From a virus, in the IMG/VR virus record IMGVR_UViG_3300030380_002429, positions 12,277 through 34,125 of that record: a stretch of DNA of 21,849 nucleotides. The stretch is one strand, 5' to 3'. Below, piece by piece: positions 3,656 to 19,048 of the stretch. Below the pieces are notes generated by a model. The model did not search any database, was not told the DNA's origin, and was given only the letters and a program-made list of their open reading frames with translations. Numbering within the stretch: the stretch's first letter is position 1; the number at the start of each line of letters is the position of its first letter. The position numbers and the translations under genes were made by a program.

Positions 3656-4369
3656 CTAATCCTTCAAAGACATTTGTGAAAGCAACCTTTCAGACATGGT
3701 AGGTCTTCCTTGAGGTAAAGAGATAGCATTCTCTCTAGGAAACATCATTTCACCCGGTTTTAACATCATTTGTTCTCCTATGCCCATGCCTTTACCTAAT
3801 TCCATAATTTTTCTTATTTCATCTAAAGTATATCGTTGATTAGGATCTGCAAGTTGCTGTGAAGGAGGTGCTATTCCAGCGTCACTGATTACTCTTCCAC
3901 TACTGTCTACAACTAATTCACCGGGTTTTAAAACCACTGTTTTTTCTTGTTGTCTTTCTTGAGCTATAACATTACCCGCTGCATCCAAAACTGTTTGACC
4001 GGGTTTTAAAACCATTGTTCTTTCTTGTGGTTTTTGACCTAAAACCTCGCCATCTGAGTTCATCAAAACTTCGCCGGGTTTAAGTATCATGGGTTCCCGT
4101 ATGTTATTAGGAAAAGGTGTTGTTTCATCCATTCCTAACATACTTTTAGCTCTGCCAATAGCAGTGGGGTCTGTAACCATTTCCTGCAATATAGATTGTA
4201 CATCCTCACCCGTTTGTTCAGCAAGCCTTCTTGCTAAAGGCATCAATATTTCATACATTTGCGGTATGGACATGCCTTGGCCAAAATTAGGACTGCTTGT
4301 ATCACCCGCATCTGCTGGTGGTCCTTCATCCGGCATTGAATCTATTAATCCCATAATTCCTTCAGCCAT
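3656..4369 (-). CDS. Short LKPGE-repeat protein, putative virion/ejection accessory protein
   Basis: This 237-residue protein has three parts. Residues 1-90 are acidic and partly helical, including a segment rich in L, A and R (MYEILMPLARRLAEQTGEDV, 38-57). Residues 94-165 hold three tandem copies of a roughly 25-residue repeat: MILKPGEVLMNSDGEVL, MVLKPGQTVLDAAGNVI and VVLKPGELVVDSSGRVI. The C-terminal part has a short helix and a degenerate fourth copy, MMLKPGEMMF, at 201-210. The same repeat builds the middle of the 1049-aa protein encoded at 8806-11955, so the two probably share a fold and perhaps a site of action. The ATG lies inside the last codons of the endolysin gene, with an 8-nt overlap. 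The function is unknown; a structural or ejection role is inferred from the shared repeat and the operon. Confidence 0.85.
   Translation of the reverse strand: MAEGIMGLIDSMPDEGPPADAGDTSSPNFGQGMSIPQMYEILMPLARRLAEQTGEDVQSILQEMVTDPTAIGRAKSMLGMDETTPFPNNIREPMILKPGEVLMNSDGEVLGQKPQERTMVLKPGQTVLDAAGNVIAQERQQEKTVVLKPGELVVDSSGRVISDAGIAPPSQQLADPNQRYTLDEIRKIMELGKGMGIGEQMMLKPGEMMFPRENAISLPQGRPTMSERLLSQMSLKD
3875..4090 (-). repeat. Three tandem LKPGE/Q protein repeats
   Basis: Three consecutive coding repeats of about 25-26 codons encode residues 94-165 of the 237-aa protein. Each has LKPG[EQ], then a hydrophobic pair, then [DN]xxG, then a hydrophobic strand. At the DNA level two copies share the 12-bp palindrome GGTTTTAAAACC (3924-3935 and 4002-4013, 78 nt apart). 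The nucleotide similarity suggests fairly recent duplication or conversion. Confidence 0.85.
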
Positions 4370-4894: not shown

Positions 4895-7800
4895 TTACCC
4901 CATTAATGATCCAATGCCCGCCTGTCTCATACGGTTAACATCAGATGTTATGTCAAAAGGAAAAGCTGCGGCCAGTTTTGCCCTTTGATTTTGGTTTACG
5001 TTTGGCCCTGCTATTGGTTGTATTGGTGAAGCAGATGCTAAAGACGGACTAATCATCTCAGGTGGTGGCCCTTGAGTCGTGGGTAGTGAGGGAAGAACGG
5101 AGGGTTGCACCGCAGATACTTTATCCTCAGAGGTAGTAGGCACGACATATTCTTCATCTGTTACTTCTCTAGCAACGCTAGGCGATATTCTAGAAGTAGG
5201 CATCAAACCTGCATCAATAAATAAATCTAGTATTACCTTAGATATTCTATTGTACTCACCTACATTTTTTGGTTCTCGCATCATCGCTGCTAATTTTTTT
5301 GGATCTCTCATAAGTTCGCCCATAACATCCATTTTCATAGAATTAGGTAAATCTGCAAACATACGGCGAAGCAATTTAGAACCCGCAGAAGCTTCAATAA
5401 GACCTGCACCACCTGTTCTTCCCGGAATAATAGAACCTGCTATAGTTCCTAATTTAGCACCTGCAAGCCTTTGAGCAAAATCTGCAAAAAAACCAAAACC
5501 CTCAACTACTTCATCTATGCCTTTTCCAGCAACAGCGTTTTCATATTTAATAAATTGTTCTAATACTTTTTTCATTTGCCCAACTTCTGCTGAAGTTGCA
5601 ACACCTTGCTCAACCATAAATTTTGATAAAACCATATCAAAAGAATTTGGCACTTTACTAAATAAAGTATCGTACATGGCTCTTGGATTAAAAGTCTGGG
5701 AAGTCATGCCCCCTTTAACCATAGCAAATTCAAGTATTGAAGATCGCAACCCCGTCATAGCTGCTTTTCTTTTATCAGCATCGGTAACTCTATTAACAAT
5801 TTTAACTAAATTCATTAAGTCTCTTTTAGGTGCTTTAGAGTTAAAAGCCTTTGTAACAGCAAGCGTAGGATTTTCTACATTAGGTAAAAGATCCATAAAG
5901 GTTGTTTGATTTTTATATTTTTGTTGTATGGCACCTAGTTTGAGACTTTTAGAACCATCTAATGAAGCGTATTTTTTAGTCCATGATTGTAATAAATGTT
6001 GTGCTCTCTGTTCGTTTAACAAATCCTCTTTTAGTTCGGGAAAACCTGCGTAACCTTTAGAAGGATCAGGGTCTAAAATTTCTTTATTAGATTTTACCCA
6101 TTTTAAAACTTCTTCCTGATTAACACTTCCGTCTGATTTGATAGCCTTAGAACGAATATTTCTAATCATTTGATCTAAGGAACCAGTAATTGTTGCAGGA
6201 ACACTTACTTCTTTTTCTAAAACCTCATCATAATATTTGTTACTTAAATTAAATTTTCTTCCAAATTTGCTAACGTCACTAAGTTGTGTAATTCTTAAAT
6301 AAGTTGGGTCAGATCCTCCCCCAAAAATTTCTTTACCTAATAATTCAGGAGGTAATGTCTGCGCACCACTTTTTAGTTTGTCTCTAAGTTTGCCAGTAAA
6401 AGCTCTTGTGTAAGTATCATTTAAAGCTAAACTAAAAGCTCTTGCTTCACCATAAGCTTGTTTAAGATCTACGTCATCAATTTGTGCCGCAAATCCATTA
6501 ATGTCGTCTAACATGGCTTGTTGTAATATAAACATTAACTCTGATCCGGGTTCATTACCTGCTTTTAATCTTTTGCCTTCTTTTAAAATTCTAGACCGCA
6601 TTTCAATTAAACTACCTATCGTAATAGGATCATCCGGAACACCAGTTGTAAAATCAGTAAAAGACTCAGCTTGCTCAGAAGCTTCTACTCTTGCTTTTTC
6701 AGAAAGTTTTCTTGCATACTTTTGAATTTGTTTAAGTTTAGCTTTTTCGCCGGCCCTCATATATTTGCCGTATTCTATCATTCTCTGATCTATGGCTTGA
6801 GCAACTATGTCGGCATAAGCTCCGGGTAAATTAGGGCCGTCAAGATTAAGTCTATCTATTGATGTCTTACTTATAAAATTATTTTGAATTATACCTTGAA
6901 CACCTTGATTCACAGGTTGATAATCATAGATAGTTGAAGCAGCTATGTTTTCAAATTCTTGTATTACGTCAGAAGTTCCTAAAGATGTAATTTGTTGATT
7001 AACACGGTTTAAATTTTTAGAAACAACTGGGGCAGAACCTGCATCCTCTGGGTCAATATCTCCAATATCAATGCCTGATCTTTTAAGAAAATCTTTAATT
7101 GGTTTTGATATTTTACTTAAATCGTATTGTTTTGCACTTATGTCATTTGGTAAAACACCACCTTCGTTTACAGATTTTAGTGTATTTATATACTTAAAAG
7201 CAGTTAAATCTTCTAACCCAATTTCAAGATTTTTTAAAGGTCCCCATAAATTATCTTCAACTTTTCTAGCTTCCTCTAAAGAACCTAAAACAGCGTTAGA
7301 AATTTTTACGCCTAATTGAGTGGTGCTTACGTTAGAACCTTCTACTCTCGCAGAAGCTTCCAATAATTTTTGAACTCTTTTCGTATAGCCACTTTCTAAT
7401 ATTGACATTATGTAATCATTTTTTAACTTAGCCGCTAATTTTAAAGCATTTTTGTCACCTGTTTGCGTCAAAACATTAATTACATTTCTAAATGCTTTTG
7501 CTGCAGCTATGTCTGCGTCTGACTTTTCTTTACCAAAACCCGGACTACTTTGTTCGATAGCAGCTTCAATAGCCGCTAAAGTAGGGCTTCCTGATAGTTG
7601 TGCTGCGGATAATTTTCCCCCACTTTCTACAAGTTTTTTTAAATCATCCGGTAAATTTGCTTCATCAATTCCAAAAACATTGTCAGATTCCAAAGCTTTA
7701 ATAACCGCATCAGGGTCTTCACCTGCTTGCTCTAACAATTCTAATATTCGATTAACGCCTTGCTGTTGACGTTTTGTTTGAAATACGTTTAAGCCTTCTT

Positions 7801-8806
7801 TAAAACCGCCTTTTCTAATTTGATTTAAAGTGCTTATAACAGAAGGTATTCTATTTAAAAGTGAGTTTGACGCTATACTACCCGCTACTCCACTAGCTAG
7901 TTCAGTCCCTAATCTTACCGGAGTTGATCCGGGAGCCACGGTTTCTGCTCCGTAAGCACCAAAAGTTGCCGCACCTGCCGCACCTAATTCAGTAAGCGGA
8001 GCTCTAATTGGTTTTTCTGTGTAGAACTTTTTTGTGTTGTTAACAAATCTTTCAATAAAAGAGTTTGTAAGCAAAGCTCCTTTTTTGTAGAAAGGTAATT
8101 TTTTGTATAAATTTTTATCCATGGTAGATAAAAAATTTGCAGCCCCTAAATCTACACCTGACTTTAAAAGATAGGGTTGAGTTATGAAAGGAACAATGTT
8201 TGCAAAAGTTTTACCGGCTTCATATGCTGCATAAGATCCAGGAGCAATAGGAGGTTCTTCCCCCATTATTCCCTCAGTCACGGCTGTTCCCGTTTCATAA
8301 CCAGCCAATGTTCCTAATAACCAAGAACCAACATAAGCCGGTGCTTTAACATAAGCCAAAGGTCCAGCAGGAGGAGCTGCTTTTAAAAAATTTAAACCTA
8401 ATTGAGTGGCTTTAACAGCCGCCGCTGAAGCAGCCGCCGCTGAAATTGAGGGTATCGCTTCTCTTGCCATACCTTTAAATATGGCAGCACCGCCAAAATT
8501 TTCAGCATTAGAAAACAGTTCTATTATCTGATCATCTGTTAGTCTTCTGTCTTTAACATTTAAATTTTTAGTAACAGGATTTAAATCAAAAAAAGGTGCT
8601 GTACCGTCTTTTAACCCATCATAAGTAATTTCTTCTGGAAACTGTGTGTTAAATTCAGCCGCTAATTGTTCTGCTAAAATATTAGAAGTATTAAATTTAA
8701 AAGTAGAAATCCATGTATCCATTCGTTCATTACTAAACTCAACCGGTTTAATTTTATCTAAAATATTATTTGAAACTTCGGGTTCAACTGGAAATGTGTC
8801 TGCCAT
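4895..8806 (-). CDS. Very large internal virion / genome-ejection-type protein
   Basis: This 1303-residue, mostly helical protein has long charged helical stretches. Several Ala/Gly-rich amphipathic or hydrophobic segments lie near the N-terminus (about 105-180, including SISAAAASAAA, and about 270-315) and again in the C-terminal third (LAGAKLGTIAGSIIPGRTGG). A Pro/Ser-rich linker precedes a terminal motif, FPFDITSDVNRMRQAGIGSL. Its size and its place after the 475-, 285- and 1049-aa genes recall the giant last internal core protein of T7-like phages (gp16, of similar length). However, I see no soluble lytic transglycosylase motif at the N-terminus and no clear sequence match. The ATG overlaps the preceding stop (TAATG). 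The call as an ejection protein is inferred from size, composition and gene order; a scaffold or other internal head protein remains possible. Confidence 0.65.
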   Translation of the reverse strand: MADTFPVEPEVSNNILDKIKPVEFSNERMDTWISTFKFNTSNILAEQLAAEFNTQFPEEITYDGLKDGTAPFFDLNPVTKNLNVKDRRLTDDQIIELFSNAENFGGAAIFKGMAREAIPSISAAAASAAAVKATQLGLNFLKAAPPAGPLAYVKAPAYVGSWLLGTLAGYETGTAVTEGIMGEEPPIAPGSYAAYEAGKTFANIVPFITQPYLLKSGVDLGAANFLSTMDKNLYKKLPFYKKGALLTNSFIERFVNNTKKFYTEKPIRAPLTELGAAGAATFGAYGAETVAPGSTPVRLGTELASGVAGSIASNSLLNRIPSVISTLNQIRKGGFKEGLNVFQTKRQQQGVNRILELLEQAGEDPDAVIKALESDNVFGIDEANLPDDLKKLVESGGKLSAAQLSGSPTLAAIEAAIEQSSPGFGKEKSDADIAAAKAFRNVINVLTQTGDKNALKLAAKLKNDYIMSILESGYTKRVQKLLEASARVEGSNVSTTQLGVKISNAVLGSLEEARKVEDNLWGPLKNLEIGLEDLTAFKYINTLKSVNEGGVLPNDISAKQYDLSKISKPIKDFLKRSGIDIGDIDPEDAGSAPVVSKNLNRVNQQITSLGTSDVIQEFENIAASTIYDYQPVNQGVQGIIQNNFISKTSIDRLNLDGPNLPGAYADIVAQAIDQRMIEYGKYMRAGEKAKLKQIQKYARKLSEKARVEASEQAESFTDFTTGVPDDPITIGSLIEMRSRILKEGKRLKAGNEPGSELMFILQQAMLDDINGFAAQIDDVDLKQAYGEARAFSLALNDTYTRAFTGKLRDKLKSGAQTLPPELLGKEIFGGGSDPTYLRITQLSDVSKFGRKFNLSNKYYDEVLEKEVSVPATITGSLDQMIRNIRSKAIKSDGSVNQEEVLKWVKSNKEILDPDPSKGYAGFPELKEDLLNEQRAQHLLQSWTKKYASLDGSKSLKLGAIQQKYKNQTTFMDLLPNVENPTLAVTKAFNSKAPKRDLMNLVKIVNRVTDADKRKAAMTGLRSSILEFAMVKGGMTSQTFNPRAMYDTLFSKVPNSFDMVLSKFMVEQGVATSAEVGQMKKVLEQFIKYENAVAGKGIDEVVEGFGFFADFAQRLAGAKLGTIAGSIIPGRTGGAGLIEASAGSKLLRRMFADLPNSMKMDVMGELMRDPKKLAAMMREPKNVGEYNRISKVILDLFIDAGLMPTSRISPSVAREVTDEEYVVPTTSEDKVSAVQPSVLPSLPTTQGPPPEMISPSLASASPIQPIAGPNVNQNQRAKLAAAFPFDITSDVNRMRQAGIGSLMG

Positions 8807-11800
8807 TATTTATTAGCCTTCATTGCACTTTTAAGATCATTTAAAACATTTTCACTAAGACCACCCGGAAGATCCTCTGGAACACCGGCTAATAAGTCTA
8901 ATAATCTTTCAATTTCTACGTTTTTACTTTCTAAATTTCTTGCTATAGTATCGTCCAAGACACCTTCAGTTAATGCGGTTAAATTTCTTTTGTATTGTTT
9001 TTTAGCTATTCTTTTCAAAGCTATGTATTTTTGAGCTTGTGTTTCAGGTCTACCAAAAATTCTATCAGGACTTGGAAATAGTGCACTTAATTGATTTAAT
9101 TCAGTAACAGCAAATTTTGGATTTACGCTTAATGCTGATCGACCTAATTTTTCAATTGCGTTAAGATACTGCCTTGCTTGCATTGTGTCTTTAAAAGTTT
9201 CTTTCATAACACCCGGTGCAACACCACCAACTACGTTATCAATTAAAGCATAGAAAGCAGCCCATGGACCTGTGCCTGCAATAGCATAATCCATAGCATC
9301 AATAATATCTGACTGATCTTGAGCACTAAGTTTTTCTTCTCCAACTTGGATTGTATCTCCATTAGCGTTTTTGTCATAAACAGGTATAGTCATTTGATCT
9401 ACACCTTTTGTAAACTTTGCTAGTTTAGCAACATTTTGTTGAAGTTTTCTTGAACTTTTTAAAGCTTGATAAGTTGTGGTGTCATTAATAGCAACCGCTC
9501 TATAATTATCTAAATTATCAATAACAGGAGCAGAACCTTCCGGTATTAAATTACCTGCCATATCAATGTTTCGACCTTTTAAATCTTTTCTTATAAAAGT
9601 TTTTTGGTCATAACTAAGAACAATGTCAGTTGCAATACCATCTTTATCCAAATCAACTAGGAAAGTTTGTGCTTTTGATTTAAGCTCTGTTGTTATTTTT
9701 TGTAAATTTAGATTAGGATCAGTGTTAGATTGAGCTACAAGTAATTGACCTTCTGCACTATTAATATCCACAACAGTTTGTGCGCCTGTCGCAGAGTTAA
9801 TAAGTTTTCTATACTCAGGTTTATATACGGTACTGTCACGCTTTGCTACAGGATGAACAGTTGCATCTTTATTCATCAGTAACATTGCGTCATAAGCTGC
9901 TTTTTCATCAGGATCACTTAAATTATAAGTATCCACCACTTTACCATTTACGACTATTTCGTAAAGATCAACTTTTGGTGGGTTGCCTTCAGCAATAACC
10001 TCACCTGTAGCTTTATCTATTACTTTTTGTCCAACGCCTACGGTCACTGTCTGGTTATCACCTCTAGCTACTACAACTCCGCTTGCGTCAACTAATGTTT
10101 GACCCGGAGACAATGTAACAAGTTTTTCACCACCCTCTGCAATTATCTTACCAGTGCTGTCTACAGCTGTTTGACCCGGTGATAATGTGTATACCTTATT
10201 GTCACCTCTGCCAATAACGACACCATCCTCGTCAATCACAACGGAGCCCGGAGCTAAATTAATATTTCTTTTTGCACCTCTGGCTTTTTCTTTACCATCG
10301 GATCCATACAATATCTGACCCGGTCCAAGAATGTGCTCTTTGCCCGGTGCAACTATAATTTCATTACCGTTTTGATCAAATACTGTCTCACCCGGAGATA
10401 ATTTAAATTTCTTAGCAGGACCTCTAACAATAAGGTTACCGCTTCGATCATAAATTTCAACACCTTCTGTAACAGCAATAGTTTTTTCTTGACCTCTTGC
10501 AACCTCTACACCACCTTGAAAAGCCACTTGACCTTCACTTAATGTTATTGTTTGAGCAGGACCTTCAGCTTTAATAGTACCGTCAGCATTTAATAATCTT
10601 TCGCCCGGTTTTAATACTCTTTCTTTACCTTGTTCTGCTATGGTTTTACCATTGCCATCGACTACTTTTTCGCCTTCGCCAATCTTATAAACTTTTGGTG
10701 GTCCGTAAGCAAGTACCACACCATTTTCGCTTACACGCATTTCGCCCGGTTGTAAGGTATATGATCTATCCGCCCCTGTCGCTACAACCTTGCCATTGGC
10801 TCCTATTAATTTTTCACCCGGTCCTATTTTTTGCGGAGCTATATATTTTTCAGGGCCTTTGGCAATGACATCACCATTTTGATTAAAGGCAACTTGATTT
10901 TCACCTAAAGTAATTACATCATCTTTACTTATTATCTCTACGCCGTCTGCTGTATAAGCTGTTTCTCCCGCTTTTAAAGTAATGTTCTTTTTGTTTTCAG
11001 CAATAACATCACCTTTATCGGTTACAACCTGCTGTCCCTCAGACATTGTTATTAATTGATTATTTCCAACAGCCAATAATTTGCCATCAATATCAAATAA
11101 TTTTTCACCCGGTTTTAATATTTTTGTCGTTTCAGTAGGTCTTTCCTGTATTATATCACCTGAAGGTGACACTAAAGCTTCACCGGGTCCTAATGTATAT
11201 TTTTTAGCTGCTGCTGCGTCAGCCGCGGTCTTTTGAGCTATAGCCATTTCTAGAGCTTTAGCTTTTTCGGTTTGCTTAACTTTATTGTAAGCCGCTAGTT
11301 GTTCCCCAATAGGTGTTGTTGAAGATGCTAAAAACCCTGCAAGTTTTTGTGCTTCTGTTTCATCATCACCATAAGGTTTACCTGTCGCAGGGTTTACACC
11401 ACTACCAAATAGAAAAGCTCTCTGTGCTATGTCTAATAAGGCTTGTCCTTGTGCTTGTTTCTTTATGTCACCAGATCCTAGAACTTCTTGGATAAGAGGT
11501 AAGTTTTTTTGATAATAGTCTGACAAAGAAACGGCGCCTCCGGGTGCATACCCCACAGGACCACCCTCTTGAAACTGTTGCACAGGCTGTGTCATTTCCA
11601 TAATGCCACCTGTCATTTCAGGGTCAACGGGCCCCGCCATCTGTTCTTGTGCCAGACCACCAATACCTTCATCAATCAATGCGTTCTCAATAACAGGCTG
11701 TGCCAAAGCTAAAACAGATTCAGGTGTCTGCATAGCATCTTCCGGACCTACAATAGTTGCTAGTTCACGGTAACGATCTTCTATTGGAGCCGCATCACCG

Positions 11801-11955
11801 CGTGTTGCGTTAATCATCTGTTCAAAGTTTTGAGAGGTGTCTATCTCTTGATTGATTTGCCCCATAACCTGTTGGGCACCTTGCTGAACAGCAGCTGCTT
11901 CGGGAGCCGTGACCGGCCCGCCTTGTTGAAACATTCGTCTTCTTAAAACGCTCAT
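8806..11955 (-). CDS. 1049-aa virion protein with 17 tandem beta-repeats, putative ejection/structural protein
   Basis: The protein has three regions. Residues 1-250 are low-complexity and helical, with two copies of a short motif, FQQGGPV (9-15) and FQEGGPV (128-134), and an Ala/Lys-rich helix before the repeats. Residues about 251-662 form 17 tandem copies of a 23-27-residue repeat, roughly T-L-x-P-G-[EQ]-x-V-V-D-x-x-G-x-V-I-A-x-G. Each has turns at PG, DxxG and AxG, as expected of a beta-solenoid or serial hairpins. Residues about 663-1049 are mixed then helical, with a possible calcium-loop-like DLDKDGIATD near 768-777 and a Gly/hydrophobic stretch (FYALIDNVVGGVAPGVM, 901-917). The ATG overlaps the stop of the 285-aa gene (ATGA) and the stop overlaps the next ATG. 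Position suggests an internal or ejection protein; the role of the repeats is unknown. Confidence 0.7.
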   Translation of the reverse strand: MSVLRRRMFQQGGPVTAPEAAAVQQGAQQVMGQINQEIDTSQNFEQMINATRGDAAPIEDRYRELATIVGPEDAMQTPESVLALAQPVIENALIDEGIGGLAQEQMAGPVDPEMTGGIMEMTQPVQQFQEGGPVGYAPGGAVSLSDYYQKNLPLIQEVLGSGDIKKQAQGQALLDIAQRAFLFGSGVNPATGKPYGDDETEAQKLAGFLASSTTPIGEQLAAYNKVKQTEKAKALEMAIAQKTAADAAAAKKYTLGPGEALVSPSGDIIQERPTETTKILKPGEKLFDIDGKLLAVGNNQLITMSEGQQVVTDKGDVIAENKKNITLKAGETAYTADGVEIISKDDVITLGENQVAFNQNGDVIAKGPEKYIAPQKIGPGEKLIGANGKVVATGADRSYTLQPGEMRVSENGVVLAYGPPKVYKIGEGEKVVDGNGKTIAEQGKERVLKPGERLLNADGTIKAEGPAQTITLSEGQVAFQGGVEVARGQEKTIAVTEGVEIYDRSGNLIVRGPAKKFKLSPGETVFDQNGNEIIVAPGKEHILGPGQILYGSDGKEKARGAKRNINLAPGSVVIDEDGVVIGRGDNKVYTLSPGQTAVDSTGKIIAEGGEKLVTLSPGQTLVDASGVVVARGDNQTVTVGVGQKVIDKATGEVIAEGNPPKVDLYEIVVNGKVVDTYNLSDPDEKAAYDAMLLMNKDATVHPVAKRDSTVYKPEYRKLINSATGAQTVVDINSAEGQLLVAQSNTDPNLNLQKITTELKSKAQTFLVDLDKDGIATDIVLSYDQKTFIRKDLKGRNIDMAGNLIPEGSAPVIDNLDNYRAVAINDTTTYQALKSSRKLQQNVAKLAKFTKGVDQMTIPVYDKNANGDTIQVGEEKLSAQDQSDIIDAMDYAIAGTGPWAAFYALIDNVVGGVAPGVMKETFKDTMQARQYLNAIEKLGRSALSVNPKFAVTELNQLSALFPSPDRIFGRPETQAQKYIALKRIAKKQYKRNLTALTEGVLDDTIARNLESKNVEIERLLDLLAGVPEDLPGGLSENVLNDLKSAMKANK
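9970..11205 (-). repeat. Array of 17 tandem ~24-codon repeats
   Basis: The array encodes residues about 251-662 of the 1049-aa protein. Counted by eye, copies begin at KKYTLGPGE, KILKPGE, ITMSEGQ, ITLKAGE, ITLGENQ, KIGPGE, YTLQPGE, YKIGEGE, VLKPGE, ITLSEGQ, IAVTEG, FKLSPGE, ILGPGQ, INLAPG, YTLSPGQ, VTLSPGQ and VTVGVGQ. Period is mostly 23-24 residues, with a few longer copies. The copies have diverged at DNA level but keep turn residues and the hydrophobic pattern, so the structure is under selection rather than being a recent slippage array. Confidence 0.9.
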
Positions 11956-12809
11956 CCAAACAATCCTAACTTGTTAGCACCTGATACAGCACTCAATCCA
12001 CCTATACCATAACCAAGGTATTGTTGGAAAGGAGAAACACCAGACCCTGGTGCAGTGCCCGTAGTAAACTGCATTTGTGACGAAGGTGCACCTTGAAATA
12101 TGTCAGATAAAAAACCAAGCCTTTGATAAGGCTCCATTTGTTGTCTTAACTGATTTTGGTAAAGAGCATCTAAACCAGCTTGTTGCTGTGCCTGTTGCCT
12201 GCTACCCATATCAAATAGAAACCCAAGTTCCTGTTGTTTTAATCCGGGAAGAGACGCACCCAAACTGGCTAAACCGCCAGCCGCAGAACCTAATCTACCC
12301 ATTCTGTTTTGAAAATTAGATGCAGCAGTACCCATTGCCTGTTGAAACCCTTGTGACCTTAACTGGCTCCCGGTCCGTGCTTGCTGATCTAAAACATTTC
12401 TACCAATCTCTGCTGACCCAATAGCTTGCCTGCCACCGCCAAAAGCACCTGCCTGTATAGCAGAATCTGCTAAACCTTGCTGCTGTTGATTACCAAGCCT
12501 GTTTATATCAGCATATTGCTGTTTTATCACTTCTTCAGTATAAGGATCCATAAACTGTTGATAGGACATGGGGTCAAATTTAGCAGTGCTCTGACTGTAT
12601 AAATCACCAGCACCTTGCAAAAAAGGCATATATGAGCCAATGCCCTGACCCGCGTATTCTGTCGCAAGCTTTTGCAACCCAGACATATCAGCTATCTGTT
12701 GTTGCGGCAGTGTCATGCCTGTTTTTGTTAAATCAACACCGGCCTGCATTAAAGCAAGCTTCATGGCTTCTATATCAGGGGCCTCTCTTGTTATTACTGT
12801 CTCAGCCAT
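11952..12809 (-). CDS. Putative internal virion / DNA ejection protein (Gln/Ala/Gly-rich)
   Basis: This 285-residue protein is rich in Gln, Ala and Gly. Residues about 80-170 are helical, with YTEEVIKQQYADINR (90-104) followed by AIQAGAFGGGRQAIG (117-131), a motif I associate with small internal or ejection proteins of podoviruses. A Gly/Ala-rich segment (LGSAAGGLASLGASLPGL, 173-190), which could contact membranes, and a Gln-rich stretch (SRQQAQQQAGLDALYQNQL) follow. The C-terminus is glycine-rich and ends in LGLFG. There is no enzymatic motif. Both ends overlap neighbours (TAATG upstream, ATGA downstream), so it is tightly coupled to the 475- and 1049-aa genes and they probably act in the same particle substructure. 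The family assignment rests on motif memory and context. Confidence 0.65.
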   Translation of the reverse strand: MAETVITREAPDIEAMKLALMQAGVDLTKTGMTLPQQQIADMSGLQKLATEYAGQGIGSYMPFLQGAGDLYSQSTAKFDPMSYQQFMDPYTEEVIKQQYADINRLGNQQQQGLADSAIQAGAFGGGRQAIGSAEIGRNVLDQQARTGSQLRSQGFQQAMGTAASNFQNRMGRLGSAAGGLASLGASLPGLKQQELGFLFDMGSRQQAQQQAGLDALYQNQLRQQMEPYQRLGFLSDIFQGAPSSQMQFTTGTAPGSGVSPFQQYLGYGIGGLSAVSGANKLGLFG

Positions 12810-14236
12810 TACGCTCTCCTTGTTTCAAGGTTACGCATTAAAGAGTACATATTCTTTATGCCTTTATTTAGATTACCATTACCCGCATTTTTTACAGCTT
12901 TTCTTGTCATCACAAACTCACCATCCATAAGCATAGCAGGTACATCATCTTTTTTACCAGAACCTAAACCGGGCCCGATACCGCCTGTTCGTCTTGGAAA
13001 AGCAGGTCCTCCCTCTTTTGCGTTAAAAGTAGGTATTGGGTATGGCGACATCTCAGAAATAGATGGTATGCCATAAGCACTAGCCACTTGTGTTTGATCT
13101 ACGAAGGGTTGTGCTGCTACATCGATGTAATACTTGTCAGGATCCTCATCAATCAAATCTTGTCCTGTTAGTATCTCCTCTTCGGGTTCTTCTTCAGGTG
13201 CACTAAAGAACCCGCCTAATGCAGCAGCACCCGTTATGCCTGCAAGCGGTACGCCATATTTTTGTAAAAAGCTAGGATCAAAATCTTTTCTTAAAAGTTG
13301 TAAAGCTTTATCTGCTGAAAATCCTTGTACTTTTGTTAAATAATCAAAATCTTTACTGGCTGCTAATTCAAGGTCGCTGTATGTTGGATTAAAAGGACCT
13401 TTAAATATTGATTGATCTAAGGAAGGCAAACCTTGCCCAAATTCAATCATGTTTTTTTGCCCAGCTATTGTTTGTGCGGTAGGCATATTAGGAAGTTTTT
13501 CAACTTGATAAATTTTACCCATTTCATCATTTGTCATAACATTATCTATGCTTGGTTGAGCTTCTGTTGAGCCAGAGGCAAAGTATTGTTGAGCCCGTTT
13601 AAAAGGATTTGATAAAGTTTCTCCAATATTTTTTGGCCGAAGACCTTGGTAACCCTGTTCAAGATCTGATAATACACCTCCTGCAAAAGTACCTCCACCT
13701 CTACCAACATTCCTTAATCCAGCAAAAGCTGCCCCAGATAAACCACCAATAGCAGCCTTTCGCAAAGCTTCTTTTGGATCATCTCCTTGTATTAAACTTC
13801 CTAAACCTGCACCCAATAAACCACTTGCAGTAGTTCCTATACCAAATTGTCCTAATGCAAAAGGTAAAATAATTGCAGCATTTTTCTTTAGTGCCTTACC
13901 TACATTTTTTAAACCTTTAAATATCTTTTTAAGAAAAAACTCTGGCTGACCTGTAATAGGATTTATAGAGTTGAGCTCACTACCTACAATATAACGCTCT
14001 GGTTCGATGCCCATGTCCCGCATTTGTGTAAACAGCATACTCTTTAACTGTGGGTTTGCATCTAATACTTCCATAGGTAAAACAGTTTCGCCTTCAGCCG
14101 CATGAACTATATATGTATCCCCGTTACGGCCCATGTTAGCAAGCTTTTCTGCTTGGTCTTGAAAAGAAGCAATACCTACCGGATCAAGTTCATAATCTGG
14201 TTTGCTATTTACAAATGATGATATACCCTGTTGCAT
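12809..14236 (-). CDS. Virion protein with paired GE-motifs, putative ejection/internal protein
   Basis: This 475-residue protein has an N-terminal block, TYIVHAAEGETVLPMEVLD (41-59), followed by RYIVGSELNSINPITGQPEF (81-100). A basic helix (KKIFKGLKNVGKALKK, 103-118) then leads into Gly/Ala hydrophobic stretches (about 119-177 and 330-344) that could insert in or lie on a membrane. An acidic linker (SAPEEEPEEE, 345-354) leads to the C-terminal block EGGPAFPRR (408-416), GIGPGLGSGKKDDVP and AMLMDGEFVMTRKAV (434-448). I recognise this last block as recurrent at the C-terminus of virion or tape-measure-like proteins of marine phages. The start follows an AAGGTAGG site and the stop overlaps the next ATG. 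Basic helix plus glycine-rich hydrophobic segments suit a DNA-ejection protein; the exact role is inferred. Confidence 0.65.
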   Translation of the reverse strand: MQQGISSFVNSKPDYELDPVGIASFQDQAEKLANMGRNGDTYIVHAAEGETVLPMEVLDANPQLKSMLFTQMRDMGIEPERYIVGSELNSINPITGQPEFFLKKIFKGLKNVGKALKKNAAIILPFALGQFGIGTTASGLLGAGLGSLIQGDDPKEALRKAAIGGLSGAAFAGLRNVGRGGGTFAGGVLSDLEQGYQGLRPKNIGETLSNPFKRAQQYFASGSTEAQPSIDNVMTNDEMGKIYQVEKLPNMPTAQTIAGQKNMIEFGQGLPSLDQSIFKGPFNPTYSDLELAASKDFDYLTKVQGFSADKALQLLRKDFDPSFLQKYGVPLAGITGAAALGGFFSAPEEEPEEEILTGQDLIDEDPDKYYIDVAAQPFVDQTQVASAYGIPSISEMSPYPIPTFNAKEGGPAFPRRTGGIGPGLGSGKKDDVPAMLMDGEFVMTRKAVKNAGNGNLNKGIKNMYSLMRNLETRRA

Positions 14237-14566: not shown

Positions 14567-14754
14567 CGACCCATAAACCAGCTGATTGTTTCTAATTGTT
14601 CTTCTGTCTCTGAATTTTGTTGTTGATTAATAAAAACCTCCAAAGCACGAATTAAATCTCCCATATAACTAGCGGTAATCAAAGGATCTCTTGCAAAATC
14701 AGTGGGTGGTTCGGGAAGTCTTGGAGGTGTTACCCCTAAATTACCATATACCAT
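14563..14754 (-). CDS. Small hypothetical protein following the tail hub
   Basis: This 63-residue protein begins MVYGNLGVTPPRLPEPPTD, a Pro-rich extended N-terminus. A helix (ASYMGDLIRALEVFINQQQ) and an acidic tail follow. I chose the ATG at 14754 rather than the in-frame TTG at 14757. It overlaps the stop of the 713-aa gene as TGATG and has a GGGAG site just upstream. Its stop overlaps the ATG of the 106-aa gene. Such one-helix proteins with an extended arm are often small connectors in the tail or neck, but nothing in the sequence proves this. Coupling on both sides supports a real gene. Confidence 0.75.
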   Translation of the reverse strand: MVYGNLGVTPPRLPEPPTDFARDPLITASYMGDLIRALEVFINQQQNSETEEQLETISWFMGR

Positions 14755-16895
14755 CAACGTCTCCCATCTGGCCTAATACTAACTCTTGGTGAGCCTAGCT
14801 TCCATTTCATTCCGGTAGCGTTTGAGTCAACGCGTAAAGCAAAAGATCGTCCTCTTACCCGTAGGTCTATTTGATTTGTATATAACTCTATAGGTGAAGT
14901 AGCGGTTCGAGTTGCTGTGCCCGCAGAGGTATTACCGTAATCTTCTCCGGGTTCATTGCGTGCTTTTAAAGTAAAATTTGCGGCAGGTGTACTTTGATTA
15001 ACAGATCCTTCGAAAGTTAAATCTGGTATAACTTTTTGTACAAGACTAAATTTGTCGCCATCACCTATGTCCATTGGTGCTGATTCAATAAACGATGTCA
15101 TTGCTGACCCATCGTCATCGTGCCCTGTTTCATGGTTATATAAAAAAGGACTTCCTGCTGCGATTGGAAAGTTTCTAATACCTCTGTCTATCCATGCTGT
15201 CCTAGCTAAATTACCAAAATACCAAACTTTTTCATTGTAGTTATATACAACATATTTATCTATGTCGCCCGTGCCACCATTGTTAAGTGAGTTAGACTCA
15301 GACGGATAAAACCATATAACTTCACCAAACTCTGAGTTCACACCAGATACAACCTTGTCTCTTTGCTGGTTGTTAAAATCAAGAAACACTTTGTCTTTTA
15401 CAGTGCATGGCAGGGTTTGTGTGCCACCAGCATAAACATAAAAATTATCCCTGCCCATCCAGAATACGAAGTCCTCTGTAGATACAGCAGCCTTTGGACC
15501 CATGATCGTAATGTTCGATGCGATTTGCTGTATACCAAAAACAAAGTCACCACCGATAAAACGTAAAGAGTGTAGTGATGTATCTGTATAAACAAGTATT
15601 TCACGTTTTGTCTCTACAGCTTGTACAAACTCTGAACCAGATCCAAGTCTCAAGCTACCCGCAGTGGTATCCGAACTGATTGTCCAGTTAGCTACAGACT
15701 CTTGGTCAGACCATCGAATCATCAATGGGTCTTGGACCGTGGTTCCATATGTGTTTGTACCGAAACAAAGCACATGTCTGTCAATGTCACTCACAAGAAC
15801 CTGTTTGGCAACAGTTGGTGTATTTGCAGCACCTGCTAATGTACTAAGCTCCACGGCCCGTGTAGATAGACCATTTGTTTTATCCCACAAAAACACTGCA
15901 CCATCTCTAGCATTTATTAGTAAATCTTCACCAAAGTTGTCGTGTGACCATGTTCTTATTTCACGAGTTGTGCCACTTACTGCAGCTATACCCCAACCAG
16001 TAAAGTCATCGTCAGATGACGCATTGCCTACAGATAATTGTACAGTTGAACCATCTGCATGAGCAGAAGCTGTTGTGCCACTTTGTGCTCTTGTAACTGT
16101 TAAATTATTTGTAGAAACATTTGTTACTTTTAAAATTTCTTCTCCAATTAAAATAAAGTCATTTGTTGCAATCTGATGTCCAGGATTTGAATTAGCAACA
16201 GTCAAAGTAGTATCTGAATTACTAAATTCTGCTCCTTCATTTATTGTTGTAGCAACAGCGTTAGCAGTCGTACCACCAAACAATCCAGCACCCCAACCTG
16301 TACCACCAACCTGCGAGTCAAGACCTGTGTTAATTTGATATGCGGCTGTTACAGAATTTCCACCTCCCACAGCATCGCTTGTTGCATTTGTAGAAACAGT
16401 TATAATATAACTATTACCATCTGTTACAGAAGTTATTTGATGTTCTGCGTTTAATATTGAGGTTCCTAAACCACCTGTAGCATCTGCACCAGCTATTGTA
16501 ACAAAATCTCCTTCTGCCGCACCATGATTAATATCATTTATTGTAACTTGTTTTTCTGTTCCTGTTGTGTCATTTGTAACAATTGGATCACTTGCTAAAC
16601 TATTTGCACTACCCCTTAAAGGTGTTATGTCATTAAATGTACCACCTTCTTCTATATAATATTTAAGATGTGTACCAACACCAAGAAAGTTTGATCCATC
16701 GAGTGCTAACCAGTTATGTAAACGTCTTGCCGTGCCTTCGTATTCATTACTAGTTAATTTTTCCCAACCACCAAACTTCTCTGGGTAACCAAAGCGAAAA
16801 CGTATCTTATCACAGTCAACCCAACCACCTTCGTTACTATACTTTGTAATTTCTCTATTTATACCTGGTTTAAACTGTAGTTTGGTTAATGGCAT
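14754..16895 (-). CDS. Tail hub / packaged-DNA stabilisation protein, P22 gp10-like
   Basis: This 713-residue beta-rich tail protein has an N-terminus (KLQFKPGINREITKYS, then GGWVDCDKIRFRFGYPEKF, 23-41) and a central block typical of the P22 gp10-like stabilisation/tail hub proteins of short-tailed phages. The central block has PLMIRWSDQESVANWT (390-405), GSLRLGSGSEF, EILVYTDTSLHSLRF (432-446), IMGPKAA, FVFWMGRDNFYVYAG and TLPCTVKDKVF. In P22, gp10 joins the portal assembly and helps hold packaged DNA. Here two extra beta-domains appear inserted at about 100-190 and 215-290; the second contains FILIGEEILKVTNVSTNNLT. The gene lies between fibre genes and the internal protein block, as expected for a hub that bears fibres. 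No clear Shine-Dalgarno precedes its ATG, one base from the preceding stop, so translation may rely on coupling. Confidence 0.78.
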   Translation of the reverse strand: MPLTKLQFKPGINREITKYSNEGGWVDCDKIRFRFGYPEKFGGWEKLTSNEYEGTARRLHNWLALDGSNFLGVGTHLKYYIEEGGTFNDITPLRGSANSLASDPIVTNDTTGTEKQVTINDINHGAAEGDFVTIAGADATGGLGTSILNAEHQITSVTDGNSYIITVSTNATSDAVGGGNSVTAAYQINTGLDSQVGGTGWGAGLFGGTTANAVATTINEGAEFSNSDTTLTVANSNPGHQIATNDFILIGEEILKVTNVSTNNLTVTRAQSGTTASAHADGSTVQLSVGNASSDDDFTGWGIAAVSGTTREIRTWSHDNFGEDLLINARDGAVFLWDKTNGLSTRAVELSTLAGAANTPTVAKQVLVSDIDRHVLCFGTNTYGTTVQDPLMIRWSDQESVANWTISSDTTAGSLRLGSGSEFVQAVETKREILVYTDTSLHSLRFIGGDFVFGIQQIASNITIMGPKAAVSTEDFVFWMGRDNFYVYAGGTQTLPCTVKDKVFLDFNNQQRDKVVSGVNSEFGEVIWFYPSESNSLNNGGTGDIDKYVVYNYNEKVWYFGNLARTAWIDRGIRNFPIAAGSPFLYNHETGHDDDGSAMTSFIESAPMDIGDGDKFSLVQKVIPDLTFEGSVNQSTPAANFTLKARNEPGEDYGNTSAGTATRTATSPIELYTNQIDLRVRGRSFALRVDSNATGMKWKLGSPRVSIRPDGRR

Positions 16896-16896
16896 A

Positions 16897-17817
16897 TTAA
16901 TTCTGTGTTATCATAGCATTAGTTGTTGATGTAGTACTTAATATATGTCGTTGGAAATTACAATTTGTTCTTAATTGAAACAAAGCGTATGATCCTGCAC
17001 TGCCTGCTGTTGATAAAACATACATACGAATATAACGACCTGCTGGTAAGACACACTCATATAATTTAAATTGTGGAAGACTAGCGTTAAAAGTATTATT
17101 GCCTGACTCTAAGAAATATTCACCACTTAATCCAACACCACTTGGTAAAGTAGAAGAAGTTGCAACGGCATTTGTTCCACCACCACTCTCACGCAATGTC
17201 ATAGACATCCCACTGTTATTTACTGCCGAACTGTTACCAGAACCATTTCGACCTTGTATAAAAAAATATGCACCGTTTGTTTCAACACCTGTGTGATTAG
17301 CTTCTAAAACATATGTTCCTGTATGAGAGACTGTAAACTCTACTTCGGCATATGATGTTGTTGTTCCACCTGCCAAAGCAGAAGCTGATACAGTCATTAA
17401 TTGAGCGTAATCTTGGTAAGAGGTGCTTGGAAATGCTGAGTAATTAGATATGTAAAAGCCTTTACCACTTGCCGCAGTTGCACCATTCCAGTTTGATCCA
17501 GCAGTTTGTATTAAATTCACATTTGATACAGAAGGAGCTACAATTCTATAAGAATTAACATAATTAGTTAAACTTAGAGAACCACTTGTATCTATAGAGG
17601 AGTTTACTGATGTAAAACTTGGTGAAACTCCACCATTAGGGTACATAGCAAAGGGTAGTGTACTTCCATTGGAGCTTGATATTGCAGTTCCACTAACAGC
17701 GTGATCAGCAGGGTCGGCAACATTATTTTCACCTTTATGTAAGGCTGTTAAATCGTTACTGCCTGATCCAAAAAAATCTCTTACAGTTGTTAAAGATATT
17801 GGTAAGCTAAGAGCCAC
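16897..17817 (-). CDS. Beta-rich tail fibre / receptor-binding accessory protein
   Basis: This 306-residue protein is dominated by Ser, Thr, Gly and Asn with alternating beta-strands and almost no charged helices. A short N-terminal segment, LPISLTTVRDFFGSGSNDLT (5-24), may dock on the tail. The central part resembles a secreted beta-sandwich (TTSYAEVEFTVSHTGTYVLE near 153-172), followed by RYIRMYVLS near 266. No depolymerase catalytic motif is apparent. It starts with GTG inside the last codons of the S74 fibre gene (11-nt overlap), with an AAGGA site about eight bases upstream. It is therefore coupled to that fibre. An adhesin or fibre-tip role is inferred from composition and neighbours; I do not recognise the family. 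Confidence 0.65.
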   Translation of the reverse strand: MALSLPISLTTVRDFFGSGSNDLTALHKGENNVADPADHAVSGTAISSSNGSTLPFAMYPNGGVSPSFTSVNSSIDTSGSLSLTNYVNSYRIVAPSVSNVNLIQTAGSNWNGATAASGKGFYISNYSAFPSTSYQDYAQLMTVSASALAGGTTTSYAEVEFTVSHTGTYVLEANHTGVETNGAYFFIQGRNGSGNSSAVNNSGMSMTLRESGGGTNAVATSSTLPSGVGLSGEYFLESGNNTFNASLPQFKLYECVLPAGRYIRMYVLSTAGSAGSYALFQLRTNCNFQRHILSTTSTTNAMITQN

Positions 17818-19048
17818 AATTACATCCTTGTTTATGTTCGTCTAATTCTTTTTTTAAATCTTTAATTGCTTCTATAAGAACGCCAACCATGTTTCCATAT
17901 GCAACAGATTTATATTCACCATCTGTTACAACTTCTGGTATAATCTTTTCTACCTCTTGTGCAATAACACCAATACCTTTTTCAGCTTGTTTAGTAAATG
18001 ACACACCACGCATATTCATTACTTTGTATAAAGCATTGTCTATGGTTTTTATGTCTGACTTTAATCTTTCATCTGATGTAGCTGTGACTTCTGCACCTTG
18101 CACGGTGCCTGTTGCCGTGACGTTTCTAAATCCAGATGCGTCTTTGTTACCGTCTACAACAACTGCCTTTGATGCTACAACTGTTCCTGCTGTTGAGCCA
18201 TCAAGTAAATTTAATTCAGCCGCTGTAGATGTAACTCCGTCTAAAATATTTAATTCAGCAGTTGTAACCGTTGCACCATCAAGTATTTCAAGTTCTGCTT
18301 CTGTAATAGTAGCACTTCCTATAGTAAAACTAGTTGAAACAGTTAAATCACCCTCATGCGTTAGTCTCATCTTCTCTGTCGCAGCTTCAGAACTACCTAG
18401 CTTAAAGACCATATCTGTTTGATTGTTATCTTCTGCAAAAGTATTATCTGCTTCAGCTACAATAGATGCAGAAACTGTTATGGCATCTGTACCACTTCCT
18501 TCATTCGGTGCTTGGAACTGTAAGGCACCAAGCACATCACCATCTGTAACTGTTGTGTCAGATGTCTGTAATGTCAACAAAGCACCATCACCAGTTTTTA
18601 CTGTTAAATCTTCTGTAAAGGAATCTGACCCAGTTTCTATCTGTGCAACTGCCGCACCAGAACCTGCACCATCTGCATAAACTATTGCTGTTTTGCCACT
18701 AGCAACAGTAACTGTAGCACCACTGCCTTGTTTAATTATTATAGATTGACTACCAGAGGTACTGTTTACTACAAAATATAATTTATCTTGATCGTTAGGT
18801 CCTATAGTAACAGTATTTGTTGCACTTAACGTACCACCAAAAACTAATACTTTAAAATGACCATCTGACAATGCACCATCTGTTGTTGTTAGATCATGTG
18901 TCGTGCCAGAAAGTGTAATAGCACCGACACCATTGATGGCTCTATCAATTATATCAAAATTTGTATTGGTTGTTGCACCCCAAGTACCTGCTTGTTCGCC
19001 TGTACCAATCTTTTCTATGCCGTTATTTGCTGTATACGAACTTGCCAT
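17807..19048 (-). CDS. Tail fibre with C-terminal S74 intramolecular chaperone
   Basis: This 413-residue fibre subunit has an N-terminal block (KIGTGEQAGTWGATTNTNFD, 13-32) that I associate with virion-attachment domains of marine phage fibres. A beta-rich shaft and three near-repeats of TAELNILDG (250-286) follow. From residue 325 comes a Peptidase S74 / endosialidase-chaperone domain: SDERLKSDIKTI carries the predicted autocleavage Ser325-Asp326, then GIGVIAQEVEKIIPEVV and YGNMVGVLIEAI. A short coiled coil and a Cys-containing end (CNCGS) close the protein. S74 chaperones drive fibre trimerisation and then cut themselves off N-terminal to the serine, so a mature fibre of about 324 residues is predicted. 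A TAGGAG site precedes the ATG. The chaperone call is strong; the receptor is unknown. Confidence 0.85.
   Translation of the reverse strand: MASSYTANNGIEKIGTGEQAGTWGATTNTNFDIIDRAINGVGAITLSGTTHDLTTTDGALSDGHFKVLVFGGTLSATNTVTIGPNDQDKLYFVVNSTSGSQSIIIKQGSGATVTVASGKTAIVYADGAGSGAAVAQIETGSDSFTEDLTVKTGDGALLTLQTSDTTVTDGDVLGALQFQAPNEGSGTDAITVSASIVAEADNTFAEDNNQTDMVFKLGSSEAATEKMRLTHEGDLTVSTSFTIGSATITEAELEILDGATVTTAELNILDGVTSTAAELNLLDGSTAGTVVASKAVVVDGNKDASGFRNVTATGTVQGAEVTATSDERLKSDIKTIDNALYKVMNMRGVSFTKQAEKGIGVIAQEVEKIIPEVVTDGEYKSVAYGNMVGVLIEAIKDLKKELDEHKQGCNCGS
18191..18301 (-). repeat. Three TAELNILDG fibre-shaft repeats
   Basis: Three consecutive 12-13-residue repeats (EAELEILDGATV, TAELNILDGVTS, AAELNLLDGSTA) encode residues 250-286 of the S74 fibre. 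They lie ahead of the chaperone and probably form a trimeric shaft segment. This repeat type recurs in fibres of marine phages. Confidence 0.85.

What the first reader, a model, noticed from the sequence alone, without database searches (positions are those of the whole stretch)
8806..11955. 17-copy beta-repeat (T-L-x-P-G-E/Q...D-x-x-G...A-x-G) inside a large virion protein
Residues about 251-662 form a long array of 23-27-residue repeats, each with three predicted turns (PG, DxxG, AxG) separated by short hydrophobic strands. That pattern suits a three-sided beta-solenoid or a run of hairpins. The array is flanked by helical regions and sits in the block where podoviruses encode internal ejection proteins, which in the known T7 case are largely helical. 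A beta-rod in this position could form part of a genome-delivery conduit or an internal head structure. I know of no described family with this arrangement, but cannot search.
Basis: partly seen in the sequence, partly recalled or inferred. Interest (0 to 1): 0.75.

Follow-up and report, generated by a model that had tools for sequence, protein, structure and literature searches.

The report
Swappable repeat array, phage ejection protein
A marine phage protein that probably helps thread the viral DNA into the host cell contains 17 copies of a short 24-residue building block, and comparison with about 80 related viruses shows that this stretch is an exchangeable slot, filled in different phages by quite different repeats and traded together with its partner gene.

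Summary
In detail: ORF 8806-11955, on the minus strand (1049 aa), carries exactly 17 diverged tandem units of 23-27 residues (residues 254-662, modal period 24), far beyond chance. No Pfam, PHROG, NCBIfam, PDB or phage-record family matches it. AlphaFold2 predicts three short strands per unit (pLDDT 72); a solenoid is neither shown nor excluded. The larger result is outside the array. The protein ("X") lies between a DNA-ejection-protein homologue (phrog_4287) and a long gene ("D") related to an annotated DNA transfer protein, the layout of P22 gp7-gp20-gp16. In relatives the X N-terminus and the last ~25-90 codons of D are conserved, while everything between is exchanged as one cassette: 33 of 43 close pairs, in 8 of 9 clusters, plus the window against its nearest relative. 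The slot holds this array (17, 6, 2-3 or 1-2 copies), at least four other repeat types, or a helix-rich, coiled-coil-like segment. Best reading: a gp20/gp15-like conduit protein whose tolerant middle segment is built here from beta repeats. Mosaic ejection proteins are known; the anchored slot with interchangeable repeat arrays appears to be a new variant. Virion location and function are untested.

The parts
8806..11955 (-). Gene X (1049 aa), candidate gp20/gp15-like ejection protein
   Evidence: ORF; synteny
11206..11955 (-). X residues 1-250: conserved N-terminal anchor with RxMFxxGG motif
   Evidence: 86% identical in L001; 33-44% in distant relatives; motif in 69 of 77 relatives
9970..11196 (-). 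17-unit repeat array (T-L-x-P-G-E/Q...D-x-x-G...A-x-G), residues 254-662
   Evidence: AF2 model
9676..9966 (-). Two beta-beta-alpha-beta units directly after the array (residues about 664-760)
   Evidence: AF2 model (pLDDT about 40-77 here); alignment A12
8809..9822 (-). Conserved C-terminal region of X (residues about 712-1049), mostly helical
   Evidence: alignment A12 with nine relatives; blastp 31-34%
4895..8806 (-). Gene D (1303 aa), DNA-transfer-protein-like, exchanged together with X
   Evidence: 26% identity over 69% of its length to the annotated DNA transfer protein of phage DSL-LC04
4895..5068 (-). Conserved C-terminal tail of D (AAxFPxD...GIGSL), right-hand anchor of the cassette
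   Evidence: DNA similarity to L001 resumes here; tail motif in relatives
5069..11230 (-). Variable cassette: X from codon about 241 to near the end of D; no DNA similarity to the closest relative although the flanks are 83-87% identical
11952..12809 (-). Ejection-protein homologue (285 aa, phrog_4287), gp7/gp14-like position
   Evidence: E 4e-13; homologues in HTVC023P and DSL-LC04
3656..4369 (-). Gene S (237 aa), small protein with three units of the same repeat
3872..4087 (-). Three repeat units inside S; the homologue in L001 has one GIPxxVF-type helical unit at this place
14754..16895 (-). Virion structural protein (phrog_3287), podovirus tail-stabilisation type
   Evidence: E 6e-65; annotated 'stabilization protein' in relatives

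Best explanation
X is an internal virion (ejection) protein in the position of P22 gp20 and T7 gp15. It would be packaged in the head, expelled at infection, and form with D (gp16-like) the channel that carries the DNA through the periplasm. Its N-terminal domain and the C-terminal tail of D are constant anchors. Its middle is a tolerant slot for any chain segment that can pass the portal and then pack side by side with its neighbours in the tube. In this phage the slot was filled by tandem duplication of a 24-residue three-strand beta unit up to 17 copies; in other phages other short repeats or helix-rich segments fill it. X middle, X C-terminus and D are exchanged together because the two proteins must fit each other. 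Shown here: the array, the slot, the anchors, and the joint exchange. Inferred: packaging, ejection, conduit location, spacer or wall role of the array, and the need of X and D to match.
For: Gene order phrog_4287 - X - D and the same order in DSL-LC04, whose D homologue is annotated DNA transfer protein. Hub gene of a podovirus tail type nearby. Joint exchange of X middle/C-terminus and D with fixed ends in window/L001 and L010/L011 and in 33 of 43 pairs: coverage 0.02 over X mid+C and 0.00 over D less tail, against 0.88 for X codons 1-250, 0.95 for the last 25 codons of D and 0.86 downstream. Slot contents: 24-aa units in L060, L103, L107, L069; other repeat types and helix-rich segments. 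Published P22 results fit: gp16 or gp20 of Sf6 alone do not work in P22 but both together do; gp20 tolerates very different intragenic mosaic modules; gp7 is conserved (PMC10883804).
Against: No sequence match of X to any known ejection protein in Pfam, PHROGs, NCBIfam or PDB sequences. No proof that X is in the virion. Slot lengths (about 75 to over 450 residues) and predicted folds differ so much that a rigid ruler is unlikely, and the spacer role may be only passive. The fold model is of moderate quality.
Confidence: 0.6

Rival explanations
1. The cassette is a variable region under diversifying selection: the X middle and D are the target of entry-blocking proteins of hosts or resident phages (as SieA acts on P22 gp16/gp20), and swapping repeat types is an escape route.
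For: Very high turnover with fixed ends. In P22, changes in gp16 and gp20, or exchange of the ejection genes for those of HK620, overcome SieA at least in part (PMC10883804).
Against: No exclusion gene or host factor was examined here; the P22 escape changes are in C-terminal regions, not in a repeat slot; neutral mosaicism would look the same.
Confidence: 0.2
2. The array is a binding surface: units in X and the three units in S interact with each other or with one common partner, so that S joins or caps the X assembly.
For: S carries the same unit in the same phage. The S homologue of the closest relative lacks it and has a GIP-type unit at that place instead; both unit types occur together in X of L107.
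Against: Only two S types were found (window and L001/L002). In L001 the X array is a third type that matches another small protein only weakly (E 0.016). Reuse of a common module pool explains it equally well.
Confidence: 0.12
3. X is a scaffold or tape-measure-like protein of another tail type rather than a podovirus ejection protein.
For: A nearby 475-aa protein (12809-14236) weakly matches tape-measure PHROGs.
Against: That match covers only a 40-residue motif near its C-terminus; the hub gene matches phrog_3287, annotated as stabilization protein in relatives.
Confidence: 0.08

Closest known systems
P22 gp20 with gp16 (ejection proteins; also Sf6, HK620, CUS-3)
   Same: Middle gene of a three-gene ejection block; long internal mosaic; must match the gp16-type partner; first gene (gp7) conserved (PMC10883804).
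   Different: No detectable sequence relation; X is about twice as long; the exchange here has fixed ends and the slot holds tandem repeat arrays, which I did not find reported for gp20.
T7 gp15 and gp16 (DNA ejectosome)
   Same: Position and sizes of the two long genes; fast divergence and domain swapping are described for this class (PMC8954989).
   Different: T7 ejection proteins are described as largely helical; X has a beta repeat array. No lytic domain was found in D by family search.
X-type proteins of related marine phage contigs (L060, L103, L069, L107)
   Same: The same 24-26 aa unit in the same slot.
   Different: 6, 2-3, 1-2 and about 2 copies instead of 17.
Major vault protein repeats and WD40 propeller hairpins
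   Same: Short strands with PG or DG turns; they appear in low-score fold and profile lists.
   Different: Scores are at noise level (Z below 3; about 2 bits per unit); no relation claimed.

Membership tests
P22 gp20 / T7 gp15 ejection proteins | Second gene of a gp7(14)-gp20(15)-gp16 block | tested here: met
   phrog_4287 gene, X, then D related to an annotated DNA transfer protein
P22 gp20 / T7 gp15 ejection proteins | Sequence homology to known members | tested here: inconclusive
   No hit in Pfam, PHROGs, NCBIfam or PDB sequences; known members themselves diverge strongly between groups (PMC8954989)
P22 gp20 / T7 gp15 ejection proteins | Packaged in the virion and ejected before the DNA | not testable with these tools
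   needs virion proteomics or ejection assays
P22 gp20 / T7 gp15 ejection proteins | Intragenic mosaicism and co-exchange with the gp16-type partner | tested here: met
P22 gp20 / T7 gp15 ejection proteins | Largely helical fold | tested here: inconclusive
   C-terminal model shows helices at low confidence; the middle is predicted beta here and is helix-rich by composition in many relatives
Three-sided beta-solenoid | One coil per repeat with parallel stacked strands | tested here: inconclusive
   Three strands per unit predicted but pTM 0.43 and no confident solenoid match
PASTA domain | Pfam PF03793 above its cut-off | tested here: not met
   13.1 bits against a cut-off of 23.2, in S only
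RCC1/WD40-type propeller | Family score above cut-off over whole blades | tested here: not met
   PF25390 14.1 bits against a cut-off of 150; unit profile gives about 2 bits per blade

The most novel reading that the evidence does not exclude
The X-D cassette is an entry-protein variable region: a fixed-end, two-gene slot in which interchangeable short repeat arrays (beta and helical) are shuffled fast enough to change how the DNA conduit meets host or prophage entry blocks, with small proteins such as S carrying matching modules.
Probability: 0.2. Interest if true: 0.8.

Novelty: new variant of a known kind. Interest (0 to 1): 0.6.

Why it matters
The P22 literature proposes that gp20-type conduit proteins lie extended along the tube, so that any section can be replaced if it packs with its neighbours. 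The marine family found here is a natural test of that idea: dozens of phages share near-identical ends but have a middle made of beta repeats, helical repeats or helix-rich segments, and the partner protein changes with it. That gives defined units and copy numbers (1 to 17) with which the architecture of a DNA conduit could be studied, and a clear marker for mosaic exchange in marine phages.

Tried and rejected
Family searches of X and S in Pfam, PHROGs, NCBIfam and PADLOC gave only sub-threshold matches. The array against 50,697 phage records and against plasmids gave no credible hit. PDB sequence searches: the apparent 7e-6 match to designed WD40 proteins is a sum of about 2-bit hairpin matches in perfect repeats and was rejected. 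Two direct viral scans with array peptides found nothing; the arrays of relatives came to light only through the conserved N-terminus. The genome-contig scan with the C-terminal profile gave no relative. Aligning fragments to the full protein misplaced the C-terminal pieces, so separate alignments were used. Fold search with the C-terminal model (pLDDT 56) gave only ferritin-like and FAT-domain noise. A P22-type portal was not found in the fragments. A suspected single-copy unit in HTVC023P gp82 (by eye) was not supported by the profile, nor was homology of its C-terminus. Evidence for a 7-unit super-repeat is weak: P 0.0016 for lags 7 and 14 chosen after seeing the data, P 0.11 for the best of all lags. 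Assembly chimaeras were considered as the cause of the swaps and judged unlikely, because breaks recur at the same two places, with open frames on both sides, in many samples.

Full report
1. The observation. The ORF lies on the minus strand, 11955 to 8806, 1049 aa. Residues 254-662 are 17 tandem units of 23-27 residues, modal 24. Identity at lag 24 is 75 matches against 37.5 +/- 3.4 for shuffles. The units are only 31% identical on average, yet the DxxG glycine is in all 17 and the PG glycine in 16, so the pattern is kept while the rest drifts. The same unit occurs three times in a small protein, S, at 3656-4369 (-).

2. What the unit looks like. AlphaFold2 on units 9-17, with units 1-8 as the second alignment row, predicts three short strands per unit throughout (mean pLDDT 72, pTM 0.43). 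Foldseek against PDB and BFVD and VIA-align give no confident match. The all-beta prediction is usable; its three-dimensional arrangement is not settled. After the array a second model (pLDDT 56 overall) shows two beta-beta-alpha-beta units and then helices.

3. Surroundings. The gene before X (11952-12809) matches phrog_4287, named DNA ejection protein, with homologues in pelagiphages HTVC023P and HTVC027P and in DSL-LC04. The gene after X, D (1303 aa), is 26% identical over 69% of its length to a protein annotated DNA transfer protein in DSL-LC04, where the homologue of the X N-terminus is encoded immediately upstream of it. A GH108 lysozyme follows D. The hub gene (14754-16895) matches phrog_3287 and is annotated stabilization protein in relatives. 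The window is part of a 36.6 kb IMG/VR record that also holds replication genes, judged by eye. This is the layout of the gp7-gp20-gp16 or gp14-gp15-gp16 ejection blocks (PMC8954989).

4. The slot. The closest relative found (L001/L002) is 86% identical in X residues 1-245 and 34% in the C-terminus, but its middle holds seven units of about 38 residues of a different kind. At DNA level the similarity (83%) stops near X codon 241 and returns only 58 codons before the end of D (86%); the repeat part of S is unmatched as well. The independent pair L010/L011 is 97-98% identical outside and shows no DNA similarity inside, with breaks at X codon about 359 and 30 codons before the D stop. Their D proteins are 24% identical, so the cassettes are diverged versions, not unrelated genes.

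5. How general it is. A scan with the N-terminal alignment found 204 relatives, of which 80 loci were kept. Among 43 pairs with 84-98% identical N-termini, 33 have lost DNA similarity over X middle and C-terminus (mean coverage 0.02) and D less its tail (0.00), while the upstream 0.9 kb (0.89), X codons 1-250 (0.88), the last 25 codons of D (0.95) and the next 1.4 kb (0.86) remain matched. The pairs fall into 9 clusters, 8 with swaps; pairs within a cluster are not independent. The ends carry conserved motifs: RxMFxxGG at the start of X in 69 of 77, and at the end of D a motif like AALFPxD...GIGSL in most relatives and in the window.

6. What fills the slot. By composition the middles split into helix-rich segments poor in G, P and N (A, E, K, Q, R, L and M about 0.57-0.70 of residues) and strand- and turn-rich ones (about 0.34-0.48). 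Sixteen of 56 non-redundant proteins show strong tandem repeats (z at or above 8), with periods including 24, 26, 27, 30, 33, 38, 41, 46 and 50. Repeat kinds seen: this 24-aa unit (window 17, L060 6, L103 2-3, L107 about 2, L069 1-2); a 27-aa unit of the form TVGGNIIDITDPDNVKVIF (L059, L062, L075); a helical unit KGIPxxVFxxLSxxxQxxILG (L107, L049); a helical unit DKDYFxKFGMxxEEFxxL (L082, L043, L083); and beta-beta-alpha-beta-like units of 38-50 aa (L001, L043, L085). Fold names for the units other than the 24-aa one are read from sequence, not predicted. The S homologue of L001 has one KGIP-type unit (E 0.003, left out of training) where the window's S has its three beta units, so S draws on the same module pool.

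7. Mechanism. I commit to this: X is a gp20/gp15-like conduit protein; the slot is a wall or spacer section that tolerates many sequences; D is its partner and travels with it. This agrees with published P22 work: gp20 or gp16 of Sf6 alone abolish plaque formation in P22, both together restore it; gp20 tolerates very different mosaic modules, explained there by extended, laterally packed chains; gp7 is conserved (PMC10883804). Small local repeat units would also suit a protein that has to unfold to leave through the portal and refold outside, but this is inference. Whether the exchange is driven by entry blocks such as SieA is open.

8. Novelty. Mosaic ejection proteins are known. I found no description of a fixed-end cassette whose slot is built from interchangeable tandem arrays, in a limited open-access literature search. 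Hence: new variant of a known kind.

9. Limits. The relatives used for the cassette comparison are metagenomic contigs; packaging and function are untested; fold models are moderate (array) or poor (C-terminus); the S link rests on two phage types.

Noticed in passing
3656-4369 (-): Small protein S carries three units of the same repeat; its L001 homologue (nearly identical elsewhere) has a helical KGIP-type unit there. The C-terminal motif LPQGRPTMSERLLSQ is shared with that homologue, and a second small L001 protein ends similarly (LPKSRPTMAEILMEQ).
   Followed up: partly
L001:15672-16223: Extra 183-aa gene absent from the window, with one unit resembling the repeat type of the L001 X protein (E 0.016 only).
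   Followed up: partly
L107:6259-9888: X protein with the beta unit and the KGIP helical unit side by side, both in the middle slot and again in its N-terminal part.
   Followed up: partly
L049, L059, L062, L075, L082, L043, L083, L085: Further tandem-repeat kinds in the same slot (periods about 27, 30, 33, 41, 46, 50), one resembling villin-headpiece-like helical units; not identified further.
   Followed up: partly
17807-19048 (-): Tail-fibre-like protein ending in a sequence (SDERLKSDI...) that looks like an intramolecular chaperone domain; judged by eye only.
   Followed up: no
9970-11196 (-): Units seven apart are somewhat more alike than others, hinting at duplication of a 7-unit block; significant only if lag 7 is chosen after the fact.
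   Followed up: partly
12809-14236 (-): 475-aa protein with a KDDVPAMLMDGEFVMTRKAVKNAG motif shared with many tape-measure PHROGs.
   Followed up: no
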